From Maribacter antarcticus DSM 21422 (GTDB lineage: Bacteria > Bacteroidota > Bacteroidia > Flavobacteriales > Flavobacteriaceae), in the NCBI RefSeq assembly GCF_000621125.1, contig NZ_JHZC01000007.1, positions 186,001 to 250,000 on the forward strand: a stretch of 64,000 nucleotides of DNA, written 5' to 3'. The position numbers were made by a program, and so were the translations under genes. Positions within the stretch are counted from its first letter, which is position 1; each line of letters begins with the position of its first letter. The notes under the pieces are model-generated. The model made no database searches and had not been told where the DNA came from. It was given only the letters and a program-made list of their open reading frames with translations. Below are positions 2-12,480 of this stretch, one piece after another.

Positions 2-46
2 GTTAAATCCAGTATTAAGGAAGACAACGAAAGAGAAGTAGAATAA
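2..46 (+). CDS. C-terminal tail of an upstream gene (partial)
   Basis: An open frame from the window edge reads a short charged tail (KEDNEREVE at its end) and stops with TAA at 44-46, about 58 nt before the next start. A charged C-terminal tail is typical of real protein ends, but 14 codons are too few to identify a family. It could equally be a chance open frame. Confidence 0.3.
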   Translation, partial: VKSSIKEDNEREVE

Positions 47-104
47 CACAAGTTGCTTTATTTTTTGGCACTACTAATTCATAATAGTTTTAATTTTTTG
101 AGTG

Positions 105-1202
105 ATGGGTTCGGATTCAAGTTCAAGCACTACTTTGAAACCTTCCAATAGGAACGCGCAACATTTGCTAGTTATTCGTCTTTCGGCGATGGGTGATGTC
201 GCCATGACCGTTCCTGTGTTGATTGCCTTGACTCAAAAATATCCTTATTTAAAAATCACTGTACTTACCAAACCTTTCTTTGAACCTATCTTTGCTCAAA
301 TACCAAATGTTACTGTTCACAAGGCTGAGGTAAAGGGAAGACATAAGGGTGTTTTAGGTCTTTGGAAACTATATAAAGAGCTTAAACCTACAGGAATTAA
401 TAGTGTTGCCGACCTCCATAACGTACTTAGAAGTTCTATTTTAAAACGATTTTTTAAGTTTCAAGGAATTCCGTTTATACAGGTAGATAAAGCAAGAAAG
501 GAGAAGAAGGCACTGACGGCAACTGAAAACAAAATATTTGAACCTTTAAAACCAATGTATTTACGTTATGCGGATGTAGTTGCATCGCTAGGTTTTCCGG
601 TACATTTAGAAAATAGGCATATACTTTCTAGCTTGGGGTTAACACCTAAGTTAAAGCAAGCTCTTAGCTTACAAGTCAAGCACTATATCGGTGTAGCCCC
701 GTTTGCTGCCTTTTCTGGAAAAATGTATCCTTTGCATCTTATGAAAGAGGCCTTAGAACAATTGAATTCCTTGGGAGCATATCAAATTTTATTATTTGGT
801 GGCGGTACCACGGAAAAGAAACAATTGGAAGTATGGGAACAGGAACTGGAACATTGTGTAAGTGTAGTAGGTAAGATTAATTTTGAAGAAGAACTAGCCC
901 TTATTTCTAACTTGGACCTTATGGTAGCAATGGACAGTGGTAACTCCCATTTAGCTGCCATGTATGGGATTCCAACAATAACACTCTGGGGTGTAACACA
1001 CCCATATACCGGATTTTATCCCTTTGGACAAGCGCAAGAAAATGCACTACTATCCGATAGAGATAAATATCCTTTGATACCTACATCGGTCTATGGTAAT
1101 AGATTTCCTAAGGGTTATGACCGTGCTATGGAAACCATAGCTCCGGAACAAGTAATTCAAAAAATAAAAGGAGTATTGCGTTTCGAAGAAACTAAACCGT
1201 AA
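105..1202 (+). CDS. Glycosyltransferase family 9 (heptosyltransferase-like)
   Basis: A GT9-type transferase, probably adding a sugar to lipopolysaccharide core at the inner face of the inner membrane. The N-terminal half has the nucleotide-sugar fold start (HLLVIRLSAMGDVAMTVP, about residues 21-38). The C-terminal half carries the donor-site segment MDSGNSHLAAMYGIPTITLW, which is characteristic of heptosyltransferases. Length (about 365 aa) is normal. GTG at 102 is immediately followed by ATG at 105, which I prefer. No Shine-Dalgarno is visible, as is usual in Bacteroidota. The stop overlaps the convergent TetR gene by 11 nt. The acceptor sugar cannot be read from the sequence. Confidence 0.88.
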   Translation: MGSDSSSSTTLKPSNRNAQHLLVIRLSAMGDVAMTVPVLIALTQKYPYLKITVLTKPFFEPIFAQIPNVTVHKAEVKGRHKGVLGLWKLYKELKPTGINSVADLHNVLRSSILKRFFKFQGIPFIQVDKARKEKKALTATENKIFEPLKPMYLRYADVVASLGFPVHLENRHILSSLGLTPKLKQALSLQVKHYIGVAPFAAFSGKMYPLHLMKEALEQLNSLGAYQILLFGGGTTEKKQLEVWEQELEHCVSVVGKINFEEELALISNLDLMVAMDSGNSHLAAMYGIPTITLWGVTHPYTGFYPFGQAQENALLSDRDKYPLIPTSVYGNRFPKGYDRAMETIAPEQVIQKIKGVLRFEETKP

Positions 1203-1809
1203 CGTTTTTAGCTTCGATTAATCTGAAGTATTGTTTAAGCTGACCCATAAAACGATATTTTCTAGCACTAGGTGAAGCTCCTGCCATTAGTGTTCGTACT
1301 CCAAAGTAAGCACTCATTAGGTATGTGGCAACGGCCTCACAGTCTACATGACGGTCTAAATGGTCATTAGACTTTCCTTTTTGTAAGGCATAAACAAGAT
1401 TTACTTCCCAGATAGAAAGAATATCGTTTAGATGCTTCATAATGGTTTCGTTTCGCCCGTTAAATTCTGATAAAAAATTACTGAGAAGACAACCAAAATC
1501 CATCTCGTTATTAACTGCGCTTTCTAGGACATCTTCAAAACATTTGGTAATATTCCAAATAGGGTTCTCATGGCCTTCAATAGGTTCGATTAAAGTGCTG
1601 TAGACCTTCCTAGCTAGTAAATTCTGAACAATCTGTATAAAGAAGTCTTCTTTAGAATCAAAGTGATAGTAAAATGCGCCTTTGCTCATAGAGAGCTCCT
1701 TTAAAACATCATCTACACTTGTGTTATAGTATCCTTTTGAATAGAATAACTCTAATCCTTTAGCCTGCATACGTTGCATGGTAGCCATGCGTTTTAGTGA
1801 TTTTTCCAT
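1192..1809 (-). CDS. TetR/AcrR family transcriptional regulator
   Basis: A one-domain repressor of the TetR type, about 205 aa. The N-terminal helix-turn-helix is plain: a KGLELFYSKGYYNTSVDDV segment, then LSMSKGAFYYHFDSKEDFF. The C-terminal two thirds is the variable helical ligand and dimer domain. The frame extends 14 codons upstream to 1851, but the Met at 1809 (MEKSLKRM) gives a normal TetR N-terminus. An inverted repeat of TetR-operator type lies about 150 bp upstream (1957-1974), which suggests autoregulation. The ligand and other targets are unknown; the adjacent arsenosugar operon is a possible target but this is not shown. Confidence 0.88.
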   Translation of the reverse strand: MEKSLKRMATMQRMQAKGLELFYSKGYYNTSVDDVLKELSMSKGAFYYHFDSKEDFFIQIVQNLLARKVYSTLIEPIEGHENPIWNITKCFEDVLESAVNNEMDFGCLLSNFLSEFNGRNETIMKHLNDILSIWEVNLVYALQKGKSNDHLDRHVDCEAVATYLMSAYFGVRTLMAGASPSARKYRFMGQLKQYFRLIEAKNVTV

Positions 1810-1956
1810 AATTCCAAGATTTGGGTTAATCCGACCATGTGGTCTATACAAAGAACCCTCAGATTGTATTTAGGAACAGGATATTTGGATATGCGGATAC
1901 AAATAATCGGCCAAAGTGCAAAATATCGATGTACTACCCATTATTTGAAAATAGTT

Positions 1957-1974
1957 ACCGACCGAGTCGTCGGT
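1957..1974. promoter_or_regulatory. Putative TetR-type operator upstream of tetR-like gene
   Basis: ACCGACCGAGTCGTCGGT contains a perfect 6-bp inverted repeat (ACCGAC-N6-GTCGGT). It can also be read as ACCGA-GTCG-TCGGT, the same layout as the site at 37772. It lies in the 240-bp gap between the TetR gene and arsS, in the upstream region of the TetR gene. Assignment to that regulator is inference. Confidence 0.5.
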
Positions 1975-2091
1975 TTAAGTGACTTATTTTTTGGTTTAAA
2001 GGGATTCAAAATTTAGTGATTGCCATAACTAAAGACGCTTTCTAATCTTTTTGATATTCATTATCTATCAAAAACTTAACGTTTGTGACCT

Positions 2092-3147
2092 TTAAGCAAC
2101 CGTTCCCTGACAACTACTCCCCGCACCGGCGGTACACCCATAGCAATGTTGAGAGACGATGATATTCCTATCGTTAAGTAGACCTTCGTTATAATCTTTA
2201 ATGTGCTTTATCTTACTTGCTACTTTCAAATCTAGCATTTGATTAAAATCACAATCGTAAAGCCATCCGTCCCAACTTATGGAAATAGTATTGGTGCACA
2301 TTACGTTTGCTACTGCAGAGGGGTTATACGCATCTACTAAAGCATACATGTAGTCATCATAGTTTTCCGAAGCTATTAAATAATCCAAGAAACGAGCTAT
2401 GGGTAAATTGGTAATGGCAAATAAATTATGGAATTGAATATCAAAATCTTCTTTCAAAGCTTTTTTAAAGTCTTTCTCCATAGCTGCTTGGTCACTCGGT
2501 AAATATGCTCCTGATGGATTGTAGACCAAATCCAACCGTAAAGAGCTACCTGGCACCCCATATCCTCTTTCGTTTAGTTCCTGTAGTGCTTTTATGGATT
2601 TATCAAACACACCTTCTCCTCGTTGTTTGTCCGTTTTACCACGTGTCCAGTGTGGCATAGAAGAGATGACATGCACATTATGTTTTTTAAAGAAATCTGG
2701 TAAATGATAGTATTTCTTATTTGCCCTAATAATCGTAAGGTTGGAGCGAACGATAAAGTCTTTAATACCTGCTTCAGCCGCCTGTTCTACAAACCATTCA
2801 AAATCAGGATTCATTTCTGGCGCCCCACCAGTCAAATCTAACGTGTGAGCCCCCGTATTTTTAATGACTTCTAGACATTGCGCCATGGTATCTCGGGTCA
2901 TAATTTCTTTACGGTCCGGACCTGCATCTACGTGGCAATGAGCACATACTTGATTGCACATATATCCTAAATTAAGCTGAAGAATCTCCAGTTTTTTAGG
3001 TCTTAGTGGAAAATGACCTATTTCTGAGATTTTATCTTTGAAAAAGGGAAGTTCACCATCGGCAAATAGACCTCCGTTTAAAATATCGAGCTGTTTATTG
3101 CTTTGAGCAAGCTCGTTTCCTTTCGCTTTTAATGATTTAGTAGCCAT
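2092..3147 (-). CDS. arsS: Arsenosugar biosynthesis radical SAM protein ArsS
   Basis: A radical SAM enzyme of the ArsS family, which transfers the 5'-deoxyadenosyl group to dimethylarsenite on the way to arsenosugars. The 4Fe-4S cluster motif CNQVCAHC has Cys64, Cys68 and Cys71. The C-terminal DUF3641 region ends in the Cys-rich signature CYGCTAGAGSSCQGTVA, typical of this family (a Cys occupies the position that can be selenocysteine in some members). Length of 351 aa is normal. It is the last gene of a six-gene minus-strand block. The methyltransferase ArsM that normally supplies its substrate is not in this window. Confidence 0.92.
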   Translation of the reverse strand: MATKSLKAKGNELAQSNKQLDILNGGLFADGELPFFKDKISEIGHFPLRPKKLEILQLNLGYMCNQVCAHCHVDAGPDRKEIMTRDTMAQCLEVIKNTGAHTLDLTGGAPEMNPDFEWFVEQAAEAGIKDFIVRSNLTIIRANKKYYHLPDFFKKHNVHVISSMPHWTRGKTDKQRGEGVFDKSIKALQELNERGYGVPGSSLRLDLVYNPSGAYLPSDQAAMEKDFKKALKEDFDIQFHNLFAITNLPIARFLDYLIASENYDDYMYALVDAYNPSAVANVMCTNTISISWDGWLYDCDFNQMLDLKVASKIKHIKDYNEGLLNDRNIIVSQHCYGCTAGAGSSCQGTVA

Positions 3148-3257
3148 TTTTTTTGTGTTGAGTACAAAGTAGTGTGTATTTAGAATTCACTATACGGACG
3201 CTGTTTATAATCTTATTTCTAAAAGCACAGCGGTCTCATATTTTAGAGCGCAGCGTT

Positions 3258-3276
3258 CTGTCGATTACATCGACAG
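3258..3276. other. Stem-loop over the stop codon of the phosphoesterase/AhpD gene
   Basis: CTGTCGAT-TAC-ATCGACAG is a perfect 8-bp stem with a 3-nt loop. It spans the TAA stop (3265-3267) of the gene upstream of arsS. No T-run follows on the minus strand, so it is not a standard terminator. It could partly attenuate arsS or stabilise a processed mRNA end. Confidence 0.4.
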
Positions 3277-4470
3277 CTTATCATATTTATTCATCATTTG
3301 CACCCCATGCACCAATGTCGCTCCACTTTCAATGGCAGCACCTACATGCACAGCCTCCATCATTTCTTCTTTGGTAATTCCTTTTTGCAAACCATCTTTG
3401 GTGTAGGCATCAATACAATAAGGACATTTCACCACATGGGAAACAGCTAGGGCAATTAAGGATTTCTCCCTTGCACTTAGTGCACCTTCTTCGAAAACCT
3501 TACCATAATAGTCAAAAAACTTAGTTCCGAGCTCTTCGCTCCATTCAGTGATCTTGCCAAATTTTCTAAGGTCTTTAGGATCGTAATACGAGTCTGCCAT
3601 TTTTTTGTTTGTTTTAGGTGCTATTGTTTCTTGTTTTGATGTATCTAAACTAATAGGAATTCCCTGCCCCATTTTTTCCAATTCGGGAAGGATTTCCATG
3701 TTGTCCCAATTACCGGAAGTTAATGTATCTGCATACGCTTCAGGTAGGTGGTTTTTAAACATTAGTTGTTGCGCTGTGGTGTGGTCATACTCAAAAGACC
3801 GATGAGTATAATTTAATTCACCTTGCTGTATTTCCAGTATCATATACCAGACTCTTGTGGTACCGTCATTTGCGGGCATGCCAATAACTCCAGGGTTTAA
3901 CCACAGCTGTTCTTTTATGGACTGATGAAAAGGGAGTCCGCAATGTCCAGCAATAATAACATCACTTTTGGTTTCTGTAAAGCACTTTTCTTTACTGCTA
4001 TTGGCGTTGGATTTAAAAACAAATTCTGATGTGTTTCTATAATTCCCGTGAACTACCGTAATTTTTTTATCGCCATAATCAAAACTAATATATTCAGGAA
4101 CCTCAGAAATCCATTGCAAGGATTCTTTTGATAAATGGCCTTTTGTATAGGGAAACCACAGTTTGGAAAAACTATCGCAACGGCCACCTGCTTTAAAATC
4201 ACAACCGCAATCTTCACTATCGTTGGCTAATTGTAACTCTACATTACCTGCTATACTCAACGCACCCCATTCACGGAATAATTCAATGGTTTCCTCAGGT
4301 TGTGCACAGTATCCAGTAATGTCTCCTGTACAAATACAATTTTCTGGAGTAATGCCTTCGGTGTCAGCAATACCTATTAACTGCTCCAAAGCCTGCAGAT
4401 TACTATATACCCCTCCAAAGAGTAATAGCTTTCCGTTTTTGGTACCAATATGTGTTATCTCTTTATCCAT
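3265..4470 (-). CDS. Metallophosphoesterase fused to AhpD-like (CMD) domain, arsenosugar-associated
   Basis: Two proteins that are usually separate appear as one 401-aa frame. The N-terminal ~290 residues form a calcineurin-like phosphoesterase: GGVYSNLQALE, CTGDITGYC, AGNVE, VVHGN and AGHCGLP are the metal-ligand blocks. The last 111 residues, from MADSYYDP, are an AhpD/carboxymuconolactone-decarboxylase-like domain with the redox pair KCPYC, matching the peroxidase-like protein found with arsenosugar genes. The AhpD part has its own ATG at 3598-3600 preceded by an A-rich leader, so it may also be translated separately. I chose the start at 4470 (MDKEITHIG), which overlaps the symporter stop by 16 nt. 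The 4497 start adds nine residues without family support. Confidence 0.85.
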   Translation of the reverse strand: MDKEITHIGTKNGKLLLFGGVYSNLQALEQLIGIADTEGITPENCICTGDITGYCAQPEETIELFREWGALSIAGNVELQLANDSEDCGCDFKAGGRCDSFSKLWFPYTKGHLSKESLQWISEVPEYISFDYGDKKITVVHGNYRNTSEFVFKSNANSSKEKCFTETKSDVIIAGHCGLPFHQSIKEQLWLNPGVIGMPANDGTTRVWYMILEIQQGELNYTHRSFEYDHTTAQQLMFKNHLPEAYADTLTSGNWDNMEILPELEKMGQGIPISLDTSKQETIAPKTNKKMADSYYDPKDLRKFGKITEWSEELGTKFFDYYGKVFEEGALSAREKSLIALAVSHVVKCPYCIDAYTKDGLQKGITKEEMMEAVHVGAAIESGATLVHGVQMMNKYDKLSM

Positions 4471-5795
4471 TTGGGTATAAAATAGAGTGTGATACAACTT
4501 AAAATTCCCCAGAAATTAATCCAAAGTAAATCCGCATATTTTCCTGTGGTAAAAATTAATCTTTGTGGAAACCAACTGAAAATCAGTAAAAATCCGAATA
4601 AAATTCCACAAAAAACACTTAGGTGAAAACTTATCTTAGGTGCTTTGTCTTTCCAAAATAGAAAAATGGGTGTTAAGCCGATAACCATAGTGCCGCTTAT
4701 GGTAGTTGCTGATAGTATTTCCGCATTCAAAAAAACAGGGATGGTGCCTAGCGCTGCAATTAAAGCCATAGACCAACGTCCGAATTTAAGTGAATTCCCA
4801 AATTTTAAATCGATTGCCAATAGCTTGGAAAAAGAGGAAAATGTGGAGTCTAAGGTAGATGCAGCCGAGGTTATCATAATAAAATTAATACCTAATAAAA
4901 TAACGATTCCGAAAGCCTTACCGACTTCAACAGCTGCTTGTCCTTGCATTCCCTGCGATTGTGCATATACCCCAACAAAACTGAAAAGTATAATACATAA
5001 AGCACCAAGAATACTTGCCCACAGGAAGCTTTTTAGCGTAATTTTTGGACTGCTTAGAAAACCTCTGTCTGTTAGAACTGGATCATGGAACGGATAACTA
5101 AACGATTGTAAAACAGCCGCAAAAAGTAAGTTTAAGCCCATATCAAAGGACCAAATCCCTGATATAATAACGGTTTTAGAGGAAAAGTTGGTGTCAGCAC
5201 TAAAAATGGCTCCTAAAATTACGAGTAGAAGAATAGCGAAAAGCCCCATTTGTATGACATCAGTAAAAATAGAACTGCTCATACCGCCTTTAAGTACATA
5301 GGCCAAGGTCAAAGCTGTAAAAACAAGTATGGACCAATAATAAGGACTCGTTCCCATATCTCCAAAATAAGTGCCGATAACCATTGTATTGCTCCAAACC
5401 TCATTAAATAGTCGGATAGCGATGAGAATAGAAAAAACGGCCACCGCTCCTTTGCCAAACTTAGACCTAAGAAAATGGTGAATGCTTGTGTATTTGCCGT
5501 GTAACCGCATCTTATAAATAACCACACCGGCAACAGCAAATGACACATAATATCCTGCATACGCAACGCCGCCAACAATACCATAGTCTAATCCTAGATT
5601 TGTAGCATTAGTAATGCTCTTGGCAAAGATCCAAGAAATGATAAGACTACCCATTAGTATAAATGTACTAGGTTCTTTTTTCTTTTGAACCGCCTTAAAA
5701 AACTGATTGGTATTTTTTGCCCATGGGGAAAGCAGAAACAGCACCATACTAGATGCAATTACTAACCCCCATTGCCATAAATTAACCTCAATCAT
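4455..5795 (-). CDS. Sodium:solute symporter (SSS family)
   Basis: A multi-pass inner-membrane protein of the SSS family, 446 aa, with about 12-13 hydrophobic segments. The family features are visible: an early unwound-helix region (SIFAKSITNATNLG), GGMSSSIFTDVIQMG in the middle, and MITSAASTLDSTFSSFSKL, the conserved region near the second sodium site. The substrate is unknown. The gene sits 10 nt downstream of the SusD gene and overlaps the phosphoesterase gene, so it is probably the inner-membrane step for whatever SusCD brings into the periplasm. It is shorter than typical proline or glucose symporters. Confidence 0.87.
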   Translation of the reverse strand: MIEVNLWQWGLVIASSMVLFLLSPWAKNTNQFFKAVQKKKEPSTFILMGSLIISWIFAKSITNATNLGLDYGIVGGVAYAGYYVSFAVAGVVIYKMRLHGKYTSIHHFLRSKFGKGAVAVFSILIAIRLFNEVWSNTMVIGTYFGDMGTSPYYWSILVFTALTLAYVLKGGMSSSIFTDVIQMGLFAILLLVILGAIFSADTNFSSKTVIISGIWSFDMGLNLLFAAVLQSFSYPFHDPVLTDRGFLSSPKITLKSFLWASILGALCIILFSFVGVYAQSQGMQGQAAVEVGKAFGIVILLGINFIMITSAASTLDSTFSSFSKLLAIDLKFGNSLKFGRWSMALIAALGTIPVFLNAEILSATTISGTMVIGLTPIFLFWKDKAPKISFHLSVFCGILFGFLLIFSWFPQRLIFTTGKYADLLWINFWGILSCITLYFIPKWIKR

Positions 5796-5805
5796 ATGTA
5801 TAACT

Positions 5806-7407
5806 TTAATCCTCGCTTTTCGAGTCCCACCAAACAGGTGTATTTACACTATTTCCATTTGTTTTAATCGCTGCAGCTCGATAATTAGCAGCATTTAAAG
5901 CCTCTTCTTCTGCGGGATACGGCATACGAACGGGTAACAAATTATCGTTTAAACTCGCTGAGATGATTTTCAATTGTGGAAAGCCGGTTCTTCTGAACTC
6001 TATCCAACCTTCGTACCCGTTTATCATATTGGAAATCCATTTTTGTGTAATGATATTTTCTAATGCATCCCCATTAGTGTATGCTCCTGTTCCCGTTAAG
6101 TAATCCGTTGGGAGATCTACTTTCCAGTAGTTAAAAGCTTGCGCAACTCCAACATTGTAGAGGGCTTGGGCATCGGCGGTGATTAGCCCTTTCTGTGCTG
6201 CTTCAGCAAGTAGAAAGTGTGTTTCCATGCTCGTCATGAAGTTCGCATCTAGTACGCCTGTATTTTCACGAAAGATGGTGCCCACTAAAGAGTAATTAGC
6301 AAGAATAGCGGCATTTTGAGTGGCATCTATTCCGTTTAACAAGCCATTGAATTCACCTGAATCGCTATTACCGAAAGGTCTGAACAGCTTTGAAATTCTA
6401 GTATCGTTCAAGTCGGTTAGTATTTCTTCCATGGTTTCAGAAAGAACAAAGTTGTTAAAATCTCCAATACGCAAACGGGCCAATCTAAAATTATTGGGTT
6501 CTCCATCTGTAAAGTCAAAAATGGCGTTTTCAGAATTTTCATCAATAAAATCACCCTCTGCAACTATAGCTTGTAATTGGGAAGCAACATCTATTTTATC
6601 TGAAATTCTAATCAGATGCTTAATCCGAAGCGAATTTGCAAAACGAATCCAGCCATTTAGATCGCCTTCAAAAAGAATATCGCCGGCTAAGGCAATACTA
6701 CCATTATATGCTTCAATTGCTGTAATACCTTTTTCCAAGTTATCCAGAATACCTCCTTCATCCACATATATGGATTCTTGTGCTTCATAAACAGGGGTTA
6801 CGGTCCCGTTATTTCCTTTAAAAGCTTCCGAATAGGGCACATCTCCAAATAAATCTGTTACCCCTGCACTCATATATGCCTTAAGAATAAGAGCAGGACC
6901 TTCATAAACTGCAAAGGTTTCATTTTCTTGGGATAGGTTTAAAATGATTTCATTATCCCTTAGGTTTTTGTAGAAAATAGGCCAAGGATTGCCACCTAAT
7001 TGGGGCGACTTTAAGTTATGTCTATCAAAAAGGTTAAAATCCAGCGCTGTGGTGTACTGTCCTAATAAATTCCCAGCGGTAAATCCTTCATAGGACATCT
7101 GTTCCCCGTAATCATAGATAACCTGGCGTAAGAGCAGACTTGGTTGTATAGTTACAGGTGAATTGGGGTTGGTATTTATTTCTTCAAAATCTTGGGTACA
7201 GGCAGAAAATAAGGTCAAAAAAATAGAAATTTTAACCAATAAGAACGCCTCCTGCAGTCCCTTCTTCTTAGCAGGGAGGGTAGAATGCACTCGTTTCTCC
7301 TCTAAAAACAGGACGGAACAATGATGATTTTGGGCCAGGTGAAGCGTTGGCAAGAATTTGTAAATTTCAAGTAAAAATGTAATTAGTAGACTATATAATT
7401 TTTTCAT
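5806..7407 (-). CDS. SusD/RagB-family outer-membrane lipoprotein (SusD-like_2 type)
   Basis: A surface-exposed nutrient-binding partner of the SusC protein encoded 11 nt upstream. The mature start ACTQDFEEINTNPNSPV, the helical TPR-like core and the region TQKWISNMINGYEGWIEFRRTGFP are classic for the SusD-like_2 group. The N-terminus is odd. From the only ATG (7407) the lipobox Cys is near residue 69, whereas a normal lipoprotein has it near 20. Between MKKLYSLL and LVKISIFLTLFSAC lie roughly 50 residues unlike a signal peptide (see finding). Either a ~150-bp insertion sits in the signal-peptide region, or a non-ATG start (GTG or TTG near 7290-7230) is used. Confidence 0.88.
   Translation of the reverse strand: MKKLYSLLITFLLEIYKFLPTLHLAQNHHCSVLFLEEKRVHSTLPAKKKGLQEAFLLVKISIFLTLFSACTQDFEEINTNPNSPVTIQPSLLLRQVIYDYGEQMSYEGFTAGNLLGQYTTALDFNLFDRHNLKSPQLGGNPWPIFYKNLRDNEIILNLSQENETFAVYEGPALILKAYMSAGVTDLFGDVPYSEAFKGNNGTVTPVYEAQESIYVDEGGILDNLEKGITAIEAYNGSIALAGDILFEGDLNGWIRFANSLRIKHLIRISDKIDVASQLQAIVAEGDFIDENSENAIFDFTDGEPNNFRLARLRIGDFNNFVLSETMEEILTDLNDTRISKLFRPFGNSDSGEFNGLLNGIDATQNAAILANYSLVGTIFRENTGVLDANFMTSMETHFLLAEAAQKGLITADAQALYNVGVAQAFNYWKVDLPTDYLTGTGAYTNGDALENIITQKWISNMINGYEGWIEFRRTGFPQLKIISASLNDNLLPVRMPYPAEEEALNAANYRAAAIKTNGNSVNTPVWWDSKSED
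7249..7278. repeat. Imperfect inverted repeat inside the SusD 5' region
   Basis: CTCCTGC (7249-7255) and GCAGGGAG (7271-7278) form an inverted repeat with one bulged base, loop about 15 nt. It lies in the atypical ~150-bp stretch between the ATG and the lipoprotein signal of the SusD gene. It may mark a small inserted element or an mRNA structure near a secondary start. Confidence 0.35.
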
Positions 7408-7418
7408 CTCTTTCCTTC

Positions 7419-10400
7419 TTAAAAATTAAATCCTGCTTTAAAACCAAAACTACGCGTGGTTGCATAGGACATGTCTTCTACACCACTAACAAAACCTTGC
7501 CCTTGAACGGCTAATTGCTCAGGGTCAAAATATGGATTCTCCGTAATGGCGAACAAGTTTCTTCCTATTAAGGACAAACTCAGGCTGGCATCTTGCTTGA
7601 ATAAGCTGAGCTTGTCAAAGGTGTAACCGATAGAAAACTGCCTTAGTTTAAGGAAAGACGCGTCATACGTATTGTTCTCCTCATGGTTTCGGTCATAAAA
7701 TTGTCGGTAATAGCTTTCGGCTGATACAGAGACAGTATTTGGTGTGAATACTGGGTTTTCCGTTGTTCCAGTATTTACCACACCTTGTGGGACTATACCT
7801 ACCTCAGGTCTAAACGAGGTTTCGGCCAGTTGTCCGCCAACATTTCCTAAAGCTCTTGTACGGGAAACAATTATTCCACCTTGCCGCCAATCCAATAGAA
7901 AACCAAGGTTCCAGTTTTTATAGGCAAACTGGTTATTGAACCCTAACATAAAATCTGGATTGTAGTTGCCTAATTTTTGGAGCTTGTTATCTGGAATGTA
8001 TCCACCTTCATCGGTTAGAATAAAATCACCTATATCATTTTTTAAGTACCCTGTTCCGTAAAGGTCTCCAACACGGCCACCTTCTTCAACTTGTAAAAAT
8101 ACCGTTTGGTTTTGACTGTCGTATATTCTAGAATAGGCTAATGTGAGTCGACCTTCATCTTGGGGTAAATCCTCTACAATAGCTCTGCTCGTGCTAAAGT
8201 TTAAGGTGCTATTCCATTTAAAATTGTCTGAAATAATAGGAGAGATACCTGCTATGATTTCCAAGCCTTTCGCTCGTACCTTTCCGCCATTTACAACTTG
8301 TTGTGTAAAGCCAGATGAGATGCCTATTGGAAGTGAAATAATCTGATCTTCCGTAACAGCATTGTAGAAGGAGATATCAAAACGTAATTGATCACTGAAA
8401 AATCGTAAATCAGCACCTACTTCAAAAGAAGAAGTAGTTTCTGGTCTTAGATTAGGGTTCGCAATCGTGTTTTGATTACTAAATGTAGGTTGACCATTAA
8501 ATGGCGTTTGTGCGACAAAGGCACCTGTAGTTTGATATGGATTGGTATCGTTTCCTACTTGTGCCCAACTTGCTCTAAGTTGTGCAAAGGAAAATGCTTT
8601 AGGTAATTTAACGACTTCAGATAGAATAAAACTACTGGAAAAAGAAGGATAGAAAAATGAGGTGTTACCTACCGAAAATGGTGTTGCCAAAGCACTTGAC
8701 CAGTCGTTCCTTCCCGTAATATCTAAGAATAGAAAATTTTTGTACCCAAACTTCGCTAAACCATAAAAACTATTGATGCGCTTATTGGATTCAAACTCGA
8801 ACACTTCAATAGGCGATGCGCCATTTGAGAGGCGGAAAATACCGGGTTGCGCTAAGCTTGTAGTCTGTGATTGTGAGGTAAAGGCTTTCTGGTCCAATCT
8901 ATTTCCACCTATAGAAACATCAACCTTAAAGTCATTGAATTGATTGGTATAGTTTAAAAGAAAGTCGGTGTTTATTTCTCTAAAGAACACATCGTGCTCC
9001 GCATAACCACCATTCTGAAAACGATTGGAACTAAACGCACGGCGCAGTTGGCGCAATTCGCTTGAGTAATCCATTCCAGAACGTATGGTTGCCGTTAAAT
9101 AATCGGTAATATCATAACGGGCAGATATATTTCCAAAAACACGGTCCCTGTTAAAGGAATTACGGTTTTCATTCAGTATAAAGAAGGGGTTATCAAAAAA
9201 AGTATAGTTATAAGAATACTGTTGCACGCCTTCTAGACCTGGTTGCCAATAGTCCCTAAGGCTATCTATATTTAGGGAACGTGGCCCCCATGCTACCAAG
9301 GAATAATTTACGTTCTCCGAACCATACCCGTTGGATGGGCGGTTATCACTTTGTGAATTCACATAACTGATAGAAGAATTGATGCTTAGCTTATCTGTAG
9401 GCATAAAACCTAATCTGGCACTTACTGTCTGTCGGTCTAGATTCACTCCAGGAATAATAGATTCACTTCTTAAATCTGTAAACGAGAGTCGGTAATTTCC
9501 TTTTTCAAATCCGTTTGAAATAGCAATATTGTTTATGAGTGTTGTTCCAGTAGTATAAAAATCCTTCAAATTATCAGGATTGGAACGGAACTCCGTGGGT
9601 GTAATAGGCAGACCACTATAAAGTGCTGTATCACCACCACGAACTACGGTGCCATCTGTTAAAGTAACCGGACTATCAAATTGAGGAATTAACTTCCCTG
9701 CATTTAAACGCGGTCCCCAGCTGTAGGTTATATTGTCACTAGTTCCGCCTCCAAGCCCGTCTACAAACTCGAACACTCCAGATTGTCCTTGTCCGTATTC
9801 ATTTTGAAAGTCTGGAAGGCGAAATGCAGAATCGACGAAAAAACTAGTGTTATAACTTATACCAAGGCCTTGCGTATTCTTTCCGCTCTTGGTTTCTATA
9901 ACGATAACACCATTAGAAGCTCGAGTACCATAAAGCGCTGCTGCACTGGGGCCTTTTAATACGGACACTGCCGCGATATCATCAGGATTTACCTCCATGG
10001 CCCCGTTTCCAAAATCAATTGCTTGAAAACCAGCTGCAGCCTCATTGGTAAAGTTGAAGATGGAATTATTGTTTATAGGAACACCGTCTACTATGAATAG
10101 AGGATTATTGTTAGAAAAAGAAGCTTCTCCACGGATGGTAATCTTAGACGAAGAACCCACTCCTGTTGCCCCTTGGTTGATGGTTACACCTGCTAATTTT
10201 CCAGTAAGGTTATCGAGAAAATTAACTGCTTTCACCTCAGTTACTCCCTTAGCATCTAGACTTTGCACGGCATAGCCTAATTCTTTGGTTACCCTTTTTA
10301 GACCTAATGCCGTTAATACGACTCCATCTAATTGCTTGAAGGATTCCAATAAGGTCACATCTATAATTCCTATATTATTCATAGGAACGTTTTGTGTTTC

Positions 10401-10622
10401 ATAGCCGAGCACGGAAAATTTTAGCACCCCTAACGAATTAGGGACGGTTAGGCTATACGTACCTTCCTCGTTTGATATAGTTCCCTTATTCGTGCCTGTT
10501 AATTGTACGTTTACATATGGGATTGGCATGCCAGACGTATTTGTTATGGTACCCGAAATAGTTTCTTGTGCATTGGTAATGGTTACCATGAAGAAAGTCA
10601 TGGCTAACAATAAATACTTCAT
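7419..10622 (-). CDS. SusC/RagA-family TonB-linked outer-membrane transporter
   Basis: A 1067-aa TonB-dependent outer-membrane channel. It has a signal peptide (MKYLLLAMTFFMVTITNAQ), a CarboxypepD_reg-like domain (about residues 20-100, ETISGTITNTSGMPIPYVNV), a plug domain with the SusC signature GTRASNGVIVIETK near residues 230-245, and a 22-strand barrel ending in a terminal Phe (FGFKAGFNF). It forms the transport complex with the SusD protein 11 nt downstream. The location between the DUF2064 glycosyltransferase and the symporter links the pair to the arsenosugar-type operon. The substrate cannot be read from the sequence. Confidence 0.95.
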   Translation of the reverse strand: MKYLLLAMTFFMVTITNAQETISGTITNTSGMPIPYVNVQLTGTNKGTISNEEGTYSLTVPNSLGVLKFSVLGYETQNVPMNNIGIIDVTLLESFKQLDGVVLTALGLKRVTKELGYAVQSLDAKGVTEVKAVNFLDNLTGKLAGVTINQGATGVGSSSKITIRGEASFSNNNPLFIVDGVPINNNSIFNFTNEAAAGFQAIDFGNGAMEVNPDDIAAVSVLKGPSAAALYGTRASNGVIVIETKSGKNTQGLGISYNTSFFVDSAFRLPDFQNEYGQGQSGVFEFVDGLGGGTSDNITYSWGPRLNAGKLIPQFDSPVTLTDGTVVRGGDTALYSGLPITPTEFRSNPDNLKDFYTTGTTLINNIAISNGFEKGNYRLSFTDLRSESIIPGVNLDRQTVSARLGFMPTDKLSINSSISYVNSQSDNRPSNGYGSENVNYSLVAWGPRSLNIDSLRDYWQPGLEGVQQYSYNYTFFDNPFFILNENRNSFNRDRVFGNISARYDITDYLTATIRSGMDYSSELRQLRRAFSSNRFQNGGYAEHDVFFREINTDFLLNYTNQFNDFKVDVSIGGNRLDQKAFTSQSQTTSLAQPGIFRLSNGASPIEVFEFESNKRINSFYGLAKFGYKNFLFLDITGRNDWSSALATPFSVGNTSFFYPSFSSSFILSEVVKLPKAFSFAQLRASWAQVGNDTNPYQTTGAFVAQTPFNGQPTFSNQNTIANPNLRPETTSSFEVGADLRFFSDQLRFDISFYNAVTEDQIISLPIGISSGFTQQVVNGGKVRAKGLEIIAGISPIISDNFKWNSTLNFSTSRAIVEDLPQDEGRLTLAYSRIYDSQNQTVFLQVEEGGRVGDLYGTGYLKNDIGDFILTDEGGYIPDNKLQKLGNYNPDFMLGFNNQFAYKNWNLGFLLDWRQGGIIVSRTRALGNVGGQLAETSFRPEVGIVPQGVVNTGTTENPVFTPNTVSVSAESYYRQFYDRNHEENNTYDASFLKLRQFSIGYTFDKLSLFKQDASLSLSLIGRNLFAITENPYFDPEQLAVQGQGFVSGVEDMSYATTRSFGFKAGFNF

Positions 10623-10679
10623 GTATTGGTATAGAATGAGTTAGTACTTTAGATGGATTTGCCCATCGTTTCAATAAAA

Positions 10680-11369
10680 CTAAGAATGAAGTAGTACAGG
10701 GGAACCTTTGTTAAAAGGTTGCTGAAGAAAAGTTGCTGAGAATAGAGAAAGCACACTAGTTTGAAGCGCTTTATCTAGCTTTAAAAGTAGTGTCAACAAG
10801 TATAGTACAGTTGATGAAATGGAATTCTTAAAATAAGCAAGACGCTTTACATCCTTGATTGTATCTATGTCACTTAGAACAGGTAATTGATAAAGAAGGC
10901 TATCGGTTTGGTCTAAAAGCGAAGAAATTTTATTAAATATACTAGATTGTTGCCAGGGTAATCTCTTAAAAGTTTCTTTATCAAAGTTAGATTTATGAAT
11001 ACCCATTAAGTAAAATCCACCATCCAAGGACGGGCCTAAAACGGTTTTTCCAGCCTTTAGAGCGGCTGCGGTTTTTAGCAGGTGTGTGGTTTTTAGTTGA
11101 GGTGTATCGTTGCCAATGGTAATGACACACTCAAAACCCTCTTCAAAAACCGTTTGGATCGCGTTTGTAAAACGCTCCCCAAAGGAGCTTCCCTTTTGTT
11201 CTTTTTCTGAAATATGAAAATAAGGTAACCCTGTTCTGTTTGCCTTCTGAAGTGTTTCTTGTGTAAGTGTTTGAAACAAAACTTCCCCGTTTGGAATAGC
11301 CTTATGTGACAACTCTTCCGCAGCGGAATTGGAAAAGACCAGGATAGCAGTTTTGTGCAAAGAATTCAA
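10680..11369 (-). CDS. DUF2064 glycosyltransferase, arsenosugar-associated (TIGR04282 type)
   Basis: A GT-A-like protein of the DUF2064 family. The blocks FGERFTNAI, TIGNDTPQL and LGPSLDGGFYLMGI, with ITLPW-like KRLPWQQSSIF, are diagnostic. Members found with ArsS are named arsenosugar biosynthesis glycosyltransferases and are thought to add the sugar aglycone; the reaction has not been firmly shown. It is the first gene of the minus-strand block. Its last ~45 residues (after LAYFKNSI) are a hydrophobic and uncharged tail beyond the family core. The spacing of 57 nt to SusC is compatible with one transcript. Confidence 0.85.
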   Translation of the reverse strand: MNSLHKTAILVFSNSAAEELSHKAIPNGEVLFQTLTQETLQKANRTGLPYFHISEKEQKGSSFGERFTNAIQTVFEEGFECVITIGNDTPQLKTTHLLKTAAALKAGKTVLGPSLDGGFYLMGIHKSNFDKETFKRLPWQQSSIFNKISSLLDQTDSLLYQLPVLSDIDTIKDVKRLAYFKNSISSTVLYLLTLLLKLDKALQTSVLSLFSATFLQQPFNKGSPVLLHS

Positions 11370-11694
11370 TGGGCTTCTTTTTCTATTATACGTGGACTTA
11401 CGATAAAAAGGATATGGTGGTTTGGTCGTAGCGGTACTAAATTCATTACAAATCGTGAAATAGTTTTTTTCTTAAAACTAACGAATCAGTTTGTTTAACA
11501 ATCTATATTTCTTCTAAATTTAAAAACAAACATCGTTATAGTAGAAGGAATTGAAGGCAAATTTCAGAATAAGCCCTAGAATTAGGCGTTTATATGTCAA
11601 AACGGACCGAGTAGTTTAAAATCTAAGCCATAAAACAAACTCGAACACGCTTCTTTCGCCTTAAACGTTCTACTTTTACAGTTCAATTTACGCT
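11370..11694. other. Divergent intergenic region between the arsenosugar block and the patatin gene
   Basis: This 325-bp AT-rich gap must hold the promoters of both divergent units. At 11604-11614 there is GACCGAGTAGT, the reverse complement of the half-site ACTACTCGGTC seen at 37777. The other arm is degenerate, so regulation by a TetR protein is only suggested. A TACTTTTA box about 25 nt before the patatin ATG is a weak match to the TAnnTTTG element. No ORF or RNA gene is apparent. Confidence 0.4.
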
Positions 11695-12480
11695 ATGCAA
11701 CCACATTCATTACAATCTAAGTCACTTGGCCTTGTACTTTCAGGAGGGGGTGTTCGTGGTATGGCTCACATAGGGGTTATCAAGGCTATGGAAGAGTTTG
11801 GATTAGATGCTAAACTTGTTGCAGGAAGTAGTGTGGGTGCTTTGATTGGTGCGCTATATGCCAACGGCAGTTCGGTTTTGGATATGATGCGCTTTTTTAA
11901 GGAAACCCCTTTATTCAAGTACAATTACTTTGCCGTAGCAAGACCCGGACTGATAAATACGGAGCGCTACATAGACACATTTAAAGAATATTTTCCTGAG
12001 GATAGTTTTGAAAGCTTACAAAAGAAACTTTTGGTGGTTGCCACGAACCTAGAACTGGGGCAGGAGGAGTTTATTTCGAGTGGCGAATTAATAAAACCTC
12101 TGTTAGCGTCTGCAGCTTTACCACCCGTTTTTAGCCCCGTAAGTTACAACGGTATGCTTTATGCCGACGGGGGTATTATGAACAACTTTCCGTCGGAAGC
12201 CGTAATGGGTAAGGTCGATTTTGTGATTGGCAGTAATGTGTCCATCGTGTCGAAGCTCCGAAGGAAGGATTTGAATAACTCAATCCAATTAGCCGGACGG
12301 GTTACGAGCTTAATGATTTACGCCATCAATAGGAAAAAAATTGACACTTGCGATTTGGTCTTTGAACCAAAAGAACTGGAACATATTGGTGTTTTAGACC
12401 GTAAAGGCTTGGAAAAAGCGTACGCACTAGGATATGAGACCGCGGTAAGGGGATTTGAAACACTGTGTACTGTGCACTAA
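11695..12480 (+). CDS. Patatin-like phospholipase
   Basis: A cytoplasmic or membrane-associated lipid acyl hydrolase, 261 aa. The oxyanion loop GGGVRG (residues 17-22), the nucleophile elbow GSSVG (Ser near residue 43) and the catalytic Asp in ADGGIMNN (near residue 155) are all present, so the Ser-Asp dyad is intact. There is no signal peptide, placing it with the RssA-like bacterial group. It is transcribed alone and converges with the reductase gene. Confidence 0.9.
   Translation: MQPHSLQSKSLGLVLSGGGVRGMAHIGVIKAMEEFGLDAKLVAGSSVGALIGALYANGSSVLDMMRFFKETPLFKYNYFAVARPGLINTERYIDTFKEYFPEDSFESLQKKLLVVATNLELGQEEFISSGELIKPLLASAALPPVFSPVSYNGMLYADGGIMNNFPSEAVMGKVDFVIGSNVSIVSKLRRKDLNNSIQLAGRVTSLMIYAINRKKIDTCDLVFEPKELEHIGVLDRKGLEKAYALGYETAVRGFETLCTVH

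What the first reader, a model, noticed from the sequence alone, without database searches (positions are those of the whole stretch)
2092..11369. Arsenosugar-type operon carrying its own SusC/SusD pair and sodium symporter
Seen: one minus-strand block with tight spacing (57 nt, 11 nt, 10 nt, a 16-nt overlap, 117 nt) of DUF2064 glycosyltransferase, SusC, SusD, SSS symporter, phosphoesterase/AhpD fusion and ArsS. Known: ArsS, the DUF2064 enzyme and the AhpD-like protein co-occur in arsenosugar loci. Inference: the TonB-dependent pair and symporter import an arsenic-containing or phosphate/sugar compound, so this operon may scavenge or remodel arsenosugars, common in seaweed, rather than make them from arsenite. 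ArsM is missing here.
Basis: partly seen in the sequence, partly recalled or inferred. Interest (0 to 1): 0.8.

Follow-up and report, generated by a model that had tools for sequence, protein, structure and literature searches.

The report
Arsenosugar operon with its own importer
A marine bacterium seems to lack the gene that methylates arsenic but keeps the rest of the arsenic-sugar pathway, part of it next to genes for a nutrient importer, which suggests that it builds arsenic sugars from organic arsenic taken up from outside.

Summary
In detail: one minus-strand block with the stated genes and spacings. Corrections: the DUF2064 protein is a divergent subfamily below the arsenosugar-enzyme cut-off, and a TetR gene belongs to the locus. 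The linkage is conserved: a SusC-SusD-symporter-"phosphoesterase" cassette lies near ArsS in 18 of 111 ArsS-bearing genomes of the window's family and recurs in four other families (near ArsS in two). All 19 cassette genomes checked carry ArsS. No ArsM was found in the window's genome; a second own locus holds the later pathway enzymes, with ArsM missing where a cassette-free relative has it. Lack of ArsM goes with the cassette (9 of 20 versus 6 of 91; near relatives 20 of 26 versus 0 of 27), but 11 of 20 keep an ArsM and a tree-corrected test is underpowered. The "phosphoesterase" has lost metal ligands and has invariant cysteines; a relative on a Roseomonas plasmid adjoins a phosphonate-type importer. 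Best reading: an uptake module feeds an external methylated arsenical to ArsS in place of, or besides, ArsM. The ligand is inferred, not shown.

The parts
10680..11369 (-). DUF2064 protein, divergent subfamily 'B' (no KTRLA motif, conserved C-terminal NKGSP tail); first gene of the block
   Evidence: (PF09837 75.7 bits; TIGR04282 103.8 < 134)
7419..10622 (-). SusC/RagA-type TonB-dependent outer-membrane transporter; nearest solved relative Bt2264
   Evidence: (TIGR04056 573.9 bits)
5806..7407 (-). SusD-like lipoprotein lid (PF12771); lipoprotein signal at about residues 58-70, true start uncertain
4455..5795 (-). sodium:solute symporter-fold inner-membrane transporter
   Evidence: weak by sequence; Foldseek to DUR3, SGLT, CHT1, SiaT, NIS
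3643..4497 (-). N-terminal metallophosphoesterase-like domain (MPE) of the fusion; metal-site residues partly lost, conserved Cys motif DCGCDF..G.RCD; probable ATG start at 4470
3265..3600 (-). C-terminal AhpD/CMD domain (TIGR04169, CPYC motif), fused to MPE
   Evidence: (196.7 bits)
2092..3147 (-). ArsS, arsenosugar radical SAM enzyme (Radical_SAM + DUF3641)
   Evidence: (431 bits)
1192..1851 (-). TetR-family regulator, conserved neighbour of this operon type
1956..1975 (.). palindromic candidate TetR operator AACCGACGACTCGGTCGGTA upstream of tetR (2 mismatches from AACCGACC-N4-GGTCGGTT)
11601..11608 (-). single half-site GGTCCGTT upstream of the block (weak; full sites only in relatives)

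Best explanation
This is an arsenosugar operon that carries a dedicated import cassette. SusC/SusD bring a compound across the outer membrane and the symporter takes it across the inner membrane. The cytoplasmic fusion receives it: the cysteine-rich, altered phosphoesterase-like domain binds or unloads it, and the AhpD-like CPYC domain keeps or makes the arsenic trivalent. ArsS then adenosylates the dimethylated arsenic, and the phosphorylase, TIGR04282 and TIGR04283 enzymes at the second own locus finish the sugar. The import supplies the methylated arsenic that the missing ArsM would have made. SHOWN: gene order, conservation, no detectable ArsM, the second locus, loss of metal ligands and invariance of the cysteines. 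INFERRED: that the cargo is an organoarsenical, and every catalytic step. The cargo is probably larger than free dimethylarsinate (a dimethylarsinoyl sugar or lipid fragment, or a thiol/peptide conjugate), since very small solutes do not seem to need a SusCD pair.
For: (1) The cassette adjoins ArsS in 18 of 111 ArsS genomes (all four genes re-checked) and in two layouts; a SusC-SusD-symporter-MPE/CMD fusion-ArsS order like the window's also occurs in a genome of another family, at 46-59% identity (L241). (2) 19 of 19 cassette genomes hold ArsS over cut-off; in 12 of them ArsS had already been seen in the locus, so the informative part is 7 of 7. In the phylum sample ArsS is in 156 of 395 genomes and all 9 with a close MPE are among them. 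(3) No ArsM in the window's genome, while the second locus has rhodanese-D2064A-PNP-TIGR04283 and the cassette-free G026 has the same genes with ArsM-DUF547 in between; ArsM is missing from that operon in 10 of 12 cassette genomes and present in 5 of 5 cassette-free ones. (4) No ArsM of either kind in 9 of 20 cassette genomes against 6 of 91 others (Fisher p 9e-5). (5) Substitution at the same slot: G063, with no strong ArsM hit, has a TonB receptor, an ABC importer and a radical SAM gene there. (6) Roseomonas plasmid: an MPE relative at the end of a phosphonate-type ABC importer operon with radical SAM and TIGR04282 genes. (7) MPE: D and H of motif I, H of motif III and the second H of motif V lost; C97, C99, C107 invariant in 13 of 13.
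Against: No ligand is shown. The ArsM association is not independent of descent: only 4 supported independent pairs (same way 1.8, other way 0.2 on average, median p 0.6; for the arsenosugar ArsM alone 1.7 against 0.5, median p 1; with near relatives 2.5 against 0.1, median p 0.5). 11 of 20 cassette genomes do have an ArsM, and in several other cassette species it sits directly behind ArsS; 6 of 91 cassette-free ArsS genomes have none. Outside the family, cassette genomes G332 and G218 hold canonical ArsM-like genes (361 and 188 bits; cut-off 263) and G512 the arsenosugar ArsM. Free dimethylarsinate is too small to need SusCD (PMC7782687, passages). Bt2264 was solved with peptide, so the cargo could be peptide-like and arsenic-free. 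The MPE-Cys link to arsenic is chemistry by analogy only.
Confidence: 0.5

Rival explanations
1. The cassette imports an arsenic-free partner for arsenosugar assembly (for example a glycerol-, phosphate- or sulfonate-bearing acceptor, or a thiol or peptide), and arsenic enters as inorganic arsenic or small methyl arsenicals by other routes.
For: 11 of 20 cassette genomes keep an ArsM and several have it in the same operon, so methyl arsenic is made there anyway. Nearest solved SusC is from a peptide-bound complex (PMC7782687 passages). Known arsenosugars carry varied aglycones (recalled).
Against: Does not explain why ArsM is so often missing where the cassette is present or why the MPE has conserved cysteines. 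Most ArsS loci of the sample have pathway genes and no cassette (75 of 111).
Confidence: 0.25
2. The cassette scavenges finished algal arsenosugars or arsenolipids and the operon remodels or degrades them for carbon, phosphorus or detoxification.
For: A SusCD pair suits a larger, sugar-bearing ligand; PNP, TIGR04282 and TIGR04283 enzymes at the second locus could rework a ribosyl-arsenical; a GH32-family glycosidase gene stands divergently beside that locus; the genome's other D2064B locus pairs SusCD and an ABC importer with a nucleoside hydrolase.
Against: The six proteins of the window block gave no hydrolase family except the degenerate phosphoesterase. The GH32 gene is also there in the cassette-free G026, so it does not go with the cassette. 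ArsS forms rather than breaks a C-As bond (PMC12159101 passage, citing Cheng 2021).
Confidence: 0.15
3. In ArsM-less genomes ArsS and its partners act on a different, arsenic-free substrate that the cassette imports.
For: All arsenic assignments rest on homology; no ArsM found in the window's genome.
Against: ArsS here is 431 bits to the equivalog and 81-94% identical to ArsS of near relatives that have ArsM; ArsM stands beside ArsS in several cassette species.
Confidence: 0.07
4. The neighbourhood is accidental: a nutrient-uptake locus inherited next to ArsS in one lineage.
For: Linkage is strongest in Maribacter-like species.
Against: Two different layouts, other families, an MPE-CMD fusion in two families, ArsS present in 7 of 7 cassette genomes where it was not in the locus.
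Confidence: 0.03

Closest known systems
Arsenosugar biosynthesis cluster (ArsM NF038099, ArsS TIGR04167, TIGR04169, TIGR04282, TIGR04283)
   Same: ArsS and TIGR04169 are present here; TIGR04282 (210 bits), TIGR04283 (227 bits), PNP and rhodanese at a second locus of the same genome.
   Different: No ArsM found; pathway split over two loci; import cassette inserted; AhpD-like protein fused to an altered phosphoesterase; TetR gene attached.
SusCD outer-membrane importers (Bt2263-2264 peptide complex; Sus/PUL glycan systems)
   Same: Full-length SusC and SusD next to each other; SusC 425 bits to Bt2264.
   Different: No polysaccharide-degrading enzyme among the 10 genes scanned around it; inner-membrane step is a symporter; partner is ArsS.
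Sodium:solute symporters (SGLT, CHT1, SiaT, NIS, DUR3)
   Same: Predicted fold matches them.
   Different: Sequence falls just below the family cut-off; no solved relative by sequence.
Calcineurin-like phosphoesterases (3rqz, SapH Ap4A hydrolase, YfcE)
   Same: Same fold and Pfam family.
   Different: Motif I Asp/His, motif III His and last motif V His replaced in 13 of 13 rows; invariant Cys motif added.
PhnCDE-type phosphonate/oxyanion ABC importer with MPE on a Roseomonas plasmid
   Same: MPE relative (38%), radical SAM and TIGR04282 genes beside an importer.
   Different: ABC instead of SusCD plus symporter; the record holds no ArsS over cut-off.

Membership tests
Arsenosugar radical SAM enzyme ArsS | Score over the TIGR04167 cut-off (300) | tested here: met
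   431 bits, DUF3641 and Radical_SAM domains
Arsenosugar biosynthesis cluster | An arsenite methyltransferase (NF038099 or another ArsM) in the genome | tested here: not met
   No match with an ArsM protein at E <= 1e-3 or NF038099 at 1e-10; best NF008823 hit 40 bits, a generic methyltransferase level
Arsenosugar biosynthesis cluster | Later enzymes (TIGR04282, nucleoside phosphorylase, TIGR04283) | tested here: met
   Second own locus, G000 contig 7: 210, 346 and 227 bits, all over cut-off
TIGR04282 arsenosugar glycosyltransferase (for the window's DUF2064 protein) | Score over cut-off 134 and the N-terminal KTRLA segment | tested here: not met
   103.8 bits; segment absent from the consensus of 65 sequences
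TIGR04169 peroxidase-like protein | Score over cut-off 120 | tested here: met
   196.7 bits over residues 302-410
SusC/RagA | Score over TIGR04056 cut-off | tested here: met
   573.9 bits against 368.25
SusD | PF12771 over cut-off, adjacent to SusC | tested here: met
   287.9 bits
Sodium:solute symporter | PF00474 over cut-off | tested here: not met
   21.0 against 22.8 bits
Sodium:solute symporter | SSS fold | tested here: met
   Foldseek E 1.5e-9, TM about 0.7-0.76 (query) to DUR3, SGLT, CHT1; model pLDDT 71.8
Active metallophosphoesterase | Complete two-metal ligand set | tested here: not met
   Motif I D/H, motif III H and last motif V H absent
Polysaccharide utilisation locus | Polysaccharide-degrading enzymes with the SusCD pair | tested here: not met
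   None among the 10 genes scanned around it (one GT9 glycosyltransferase is there, a synthetic enzyme)
Organoarsenical importer | Transport of an arsenical | not testable with these tools
   Needs uptake assays
Single operon | Cotranscription | not testable with these tools
   Only spacing and conserved order

The most novel reading that the evidence does not exclude
A SusCD-symporter system with a cysteine-rich, repurposed phosphoesterase is a dedicated importer of dimethylated organoarsenic, the first of its kind. It lets marine Bacteroidota drop arsenic methylation and build arsenosugars from arsenic compounds released by algae, so that arsenosugar synthesis is shared between organisms.
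Probability: 0.4. Interest if true: 0.87.

Novelty: new variant of a known kind. Interest (0 to 1): 0.74.

Why it matters
Arsenosugars are a main form of arsenic in seaweed, and why cells make them is an old open question (recalled). If bacteria without ArsM import methylated arsenic to make them, arsenosugar is a sought-after product and not only a by-product of detoxification, and arsenic joins vitamins and siderophores as something passed between organisms in the sea. It would also add a new kind of SusCD cargo, and there are closely related species pairs (with and without ArsM or cassette) in which this can be tested directly.

Tried and rejected
Chance linkage: rejected by conservation in two layouts and other families and by co-occurrence. 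Ordinary glycan PUL: no polysaccharide-degrading enzyme among the 10 genes scanned around the pair, SusC closest to Bt2264. Active phosphoesterase: ligand loss. ArsM hidden elsewhere in the genome: not found with three queries. Recognising the symporter's substrate by sequence failed (no match), and the fold search names many SSS members without choosing one. Plasmid searches gave one close MPE relative only, so the Roseomonas parallel is a single case. Sigma-70 promoter scan: no more than shuffles (31 found, 30.6 expected). Operator motif: with up to 4 mismatches the number of hits (185, merged) lies within permuted controls (30-242, unmerged); only the position of the near-perfect sites speaks for it, and the scan of 17 second-locus regions with up to 5 mismatches showed no clear site before the rhodanese gene. 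Tree-corrected ArsM/cassette tests were underpowered.

Literature: only searched arsenosugars together with SusC/SusD/TonB words; the rows listed (15 of 29,128 and 5 of 190 papers) show no use of the word arsenosugar. Searches searched other arsenic terms and no listed title or abstract start named an importer in such a cluster. Only listings, and passages of three papers, were seen; most subscription papers are not held. So novelty is not proven by search.

Rows left out: the 111-genome count uses the genomes over the ArsS cut-off among 149 searched; some stretches are cut by contig ends, so absence of the cassette there is weaker. ArsM classes in that count come, whose match list was cut, so genomes without a listed match of about 60 bits or more were judged by best E-value. 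Overlap filters hid SusD in L143 and L157 and MPE in L164; one search finds them. The near-relative table uses 53 of the 80 loci: 45 of 46 handles given to (one not held) and 8 of those given. The other 27 loci were not in it (4 of them, with the other layout and ArsM present, were). Those loci were chosen by similarity to the window's own fusion protein and are not a random sample. The ArsM state of L003 was taken from G446, taken as the same genome because contig length and gene layout agree; five further duplicates were dropped from the tree on equal contig lengths.
Full report
What is there. The window is part of a 4.85 Mb genome (99.99% complete) of a Maribacter-like flavobacterium; the nearest named locus, a Maribacter metagenome contig, has 98% identical ArsS. 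A TetR gene follows ArsS on the same strand. The DUF2064 protein belongs to a subfamily, here called D2064B, without the KTRLA segment and with a conserved C-terminal NKGSP tail; it is below the TIGR04282 cut-off.

Conservation. I fetched up to 20 kb around ArsS from the genomes that pass the ArsS cut-off, 111 of 149 of the window's family, drawn nearly one per genus (the window stands for its own genome). Three layouts appear. Type I is CMD-ArsS-rhodanese-D2064A-PNP-ArsM, often with a sterol desaturase and a GT2; 75 of 111 have such pathway genes nearby and no cassette. Type II has D2064B-SusC-SusD-symporter-MPE inserted between ArsS and the rhodanese gene. Type III, Maribacter-like, is D2064B-[SusC-SusD-symporter-MPE]-CMD-ArsS-TetR, with the bracketed cassette present or absent. 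With the cassette, MPE and CMD form one open frame in 27 of 30 such loci checked; in L197 and L028, the same record, they do not, and L009 was not resolved. In the type II and other cassette loci of the sample MPE is a separate gene. The symporter and MPE lie near ArsS in 20 of 111, SusC and SusD too in 18 of 111. In a phylum sample of 395 genomes MPE relatives at 45% identity or more occur in 9, five of them in other families (three more matches at 29-31%). All five have SusC-SusD-symporter-MPE together, two with ArsS nearby, and one with an MPE-CMD fusion followed by ArsS as in the window. Of 19 cassette genomes and one plasmid record tested, all 19 genomes have ArsS over cut-off and the plasmid does not. 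In 12 of the 19 ArsS had been seen in the locus; the telling ones are the other 7 (G462, G512, G218 and the genomes of L029, L031, L036, L037). ArsS is in 156 of 395 genomes of the phylum sample, among them all 9 with a close MPE.

ArsM. The methyltransferase of type I and II operons is NF038099, 'arsenosugar biosynthesis arsenite methyltransferase' (576 bits for L030). No ArsM was found in the window's genome: no match at E 1e-3 with an ArsM protein, none with NF038099 at 1e-10, and only a 40-bit generic methyltransferase hit with NF008823. The rest of the pathway is present on another contig: rhodanese (NF045521), TIGR04282, purine nucleoside phosphorylase and TIGR04283, each over its cut-off. 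In the cassette-free relative G026 the same genes read rhodanese-D2064A-PNP-ArsM-DUF547-GT2, so ArsM is missing at its place. Of 12 cassette genomes examined at that operon 10 lack ArsM there; 5 of 5 cassette-free ones have it. Three of the ten (G547, G549, G553) have an ArsM directly behind ArsS instead, 87% identical to the Flavivirga protein, whereas the operon copies are 80-84%; this looks like loss and later regain, but was not tested with a tree.

Association. In the 111-genome sample no ArsM of either kind was found in 9 of 20 cassette genomes and in 6 of 91 others (Fisher p 9e-5); for the arsenosugar ArsM alone 10 of 20 against 16 of 91 lack it (p 0.006). Among 53 near relatives, 20 of 26 cassette genomes and 0 of 27 cassette-free genomes lack it (p 1e-9). 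These p-values ignore shared descent. On an ArsS tree only four supported independent pairs exist; they lean the expected way (1.8 against 0.2 on average; 1.7 against 0.5 for the arsenosugar ArsM alone; 2.5 against 0.1 with the near relatives added) but cannot reach significance. One of the six ArsM-less genomes without the cassette, G063, has at the same slot a TonB receptor, an ABC importer with a solute-binding protein, and a radical SAM gene: a different importer in the same place. The other five are G046, G062, G065, G095 and G098; three of them are small genomes of 1.6-1.9 Mb, and G062, G065 and G095 are 83-88% complete.

The phosphoesterase-like domain. Aligned with its relatives and with the solved 3rqz, it has Gly and Tyr for the motif I Asp and His, Val (Cys in Roseomonas) for the motif III His and Gly for the last motif V His. 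It keeps the Asp, Asn, His and His that would hold one metal. Cys97, Cys99 and Cys107 are invariant in 13 of 13 sequences, the Roseomonas one included; Cys54, Cys64 and Cys186 are nearly so. The predicted fold is a phosphoesterase (pLDDT 74; best match SapH, E 2.8e-12). I infer a binding or unloading role for a thiophilic ligand such as trivalent methyl arsenic rather than a classical phosphatase. The Roseomonas relative (38% identity) ends an operon with a PhnD-like binding protein, PhnE, an ATPase, two radical SAM genes and TIGR04282. Thus in two phyla this domain adjoins an importer and arsenosugar-type enzymes, though the alphaproteobacterial case is a single one.

Transporters. SusC is nearest among solved structures to Bt2264 (425 bits; next 117). 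The Bt2263/64 complex was seen with peptide (PMC7782687, passages read). The same paper says that monosaccharides and very small oligosaccharides do not appear to need a Sus system, which argues against free dimethylarsinate as cargo. The symporter model matches DUR3, SGLT, CHT1, SiaT and NIS, which does not name a ligand.

Regulation. A palindrome near AACCGACC-N4-GGTCGGTT stands before tetR or before D2064B in many type III loci. Of 13 hits with at most one mismatch in 50 loci (970 kb), 12 lie some 120-160 bp upstream of the match to one of these genes by my reading of the coordinates (three loci turned by hand). In the window the tetR site has two mismatches (1956-1975), and before the block there is only a half-site (11601-11608). 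With up to four mismatches the hit count is not above controls.

Known biochemistry. ArsS with ArsM makes the first steps of arsenosugar synthesis in Synechocystis (PMC8552651, passage read), and radical SAM adenosylation of arsenic in arsenosugar synthesis is reported (PMC12159101, passage read, citing Cheng 2021, not held). I found no paper on an importer in such clusters in the searches named under Tried and rejected, which saw only listings.

Verdict. Confirmed observation, interpretation partly supported. That the cassette is an import module belonging to the ArsS pathway is about 90% likely; that its cargo is a methylated arsenical that replaces or supplements ArsM, about 50%.

Noticed in passing
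L247 (window's own genome, contig 12, 11000-30500): 2-9915: A second D2064B gene heads another operon: D2064B-SusC (44% to the window's)-SusD-solute-binding protein-two permeases-ATPase-nucleoside hydrolase. D2064B seems to go with import modules.
   Followed up: partly
L246: 6870-8450 (own genome), L248: 6675-8420, L249: 10046-11608: A GH32-family glycosidase gene stands divergently beside the rhodanese-TIGR04282-PNP locus in the own genome, G075 and the cassette-free G026.
   Followed up: partly
L209: 11147-18683: In G063 a TonB receptor, an ABC importer and a radical SAM gene replace the SusCD-symporter-MPE cassette at the same slot between D2064B and rhodanese.
   Followed up: partly
L224 (Roseomonas haemaphysalidis plasmid p546-1): A cluster of TIGR04282, DUF547, two radical SAM genes, PhnD/PhnE-type ABC importer and MPE, with a TIGR04283-like gene (165 bits, cut-off 182) nearby.
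   Followed up: partly
L006, L008, L011, L015, L016, directly behind ArsS: ArsM genes next to ArsS, closer to the Flavivirga type (87-88%) than the operon copies of relatives (80-84%): possible regain by transfer.
   Followed up: partly
window 7239-7407 and SusD genes of L003, L013, L016, L024: N-terminal extensions of varied sequence before the SusD lipoprotein signal, in frame, in some species only.
   Followed up: no
L040 (Maribacter litopenaei): 4049-7248 and 11287-12340: SusC and ArsS each match in two pieces in different frames, so both may be broken or mis-sequenced.
   Followed up: no
G121 contig 1, 464811-465596: A canonical ArsM-like gene with an in-frame TAA in the match, in a genome that has symporter+MPE without SusCD.
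   Followed up: no
window 1956-1975 and intergenic regions of type III loci: Palindrome, near-perfect in several relatives, before tetR or before D2064B: a likely TetR operator.
   Followed up: partly
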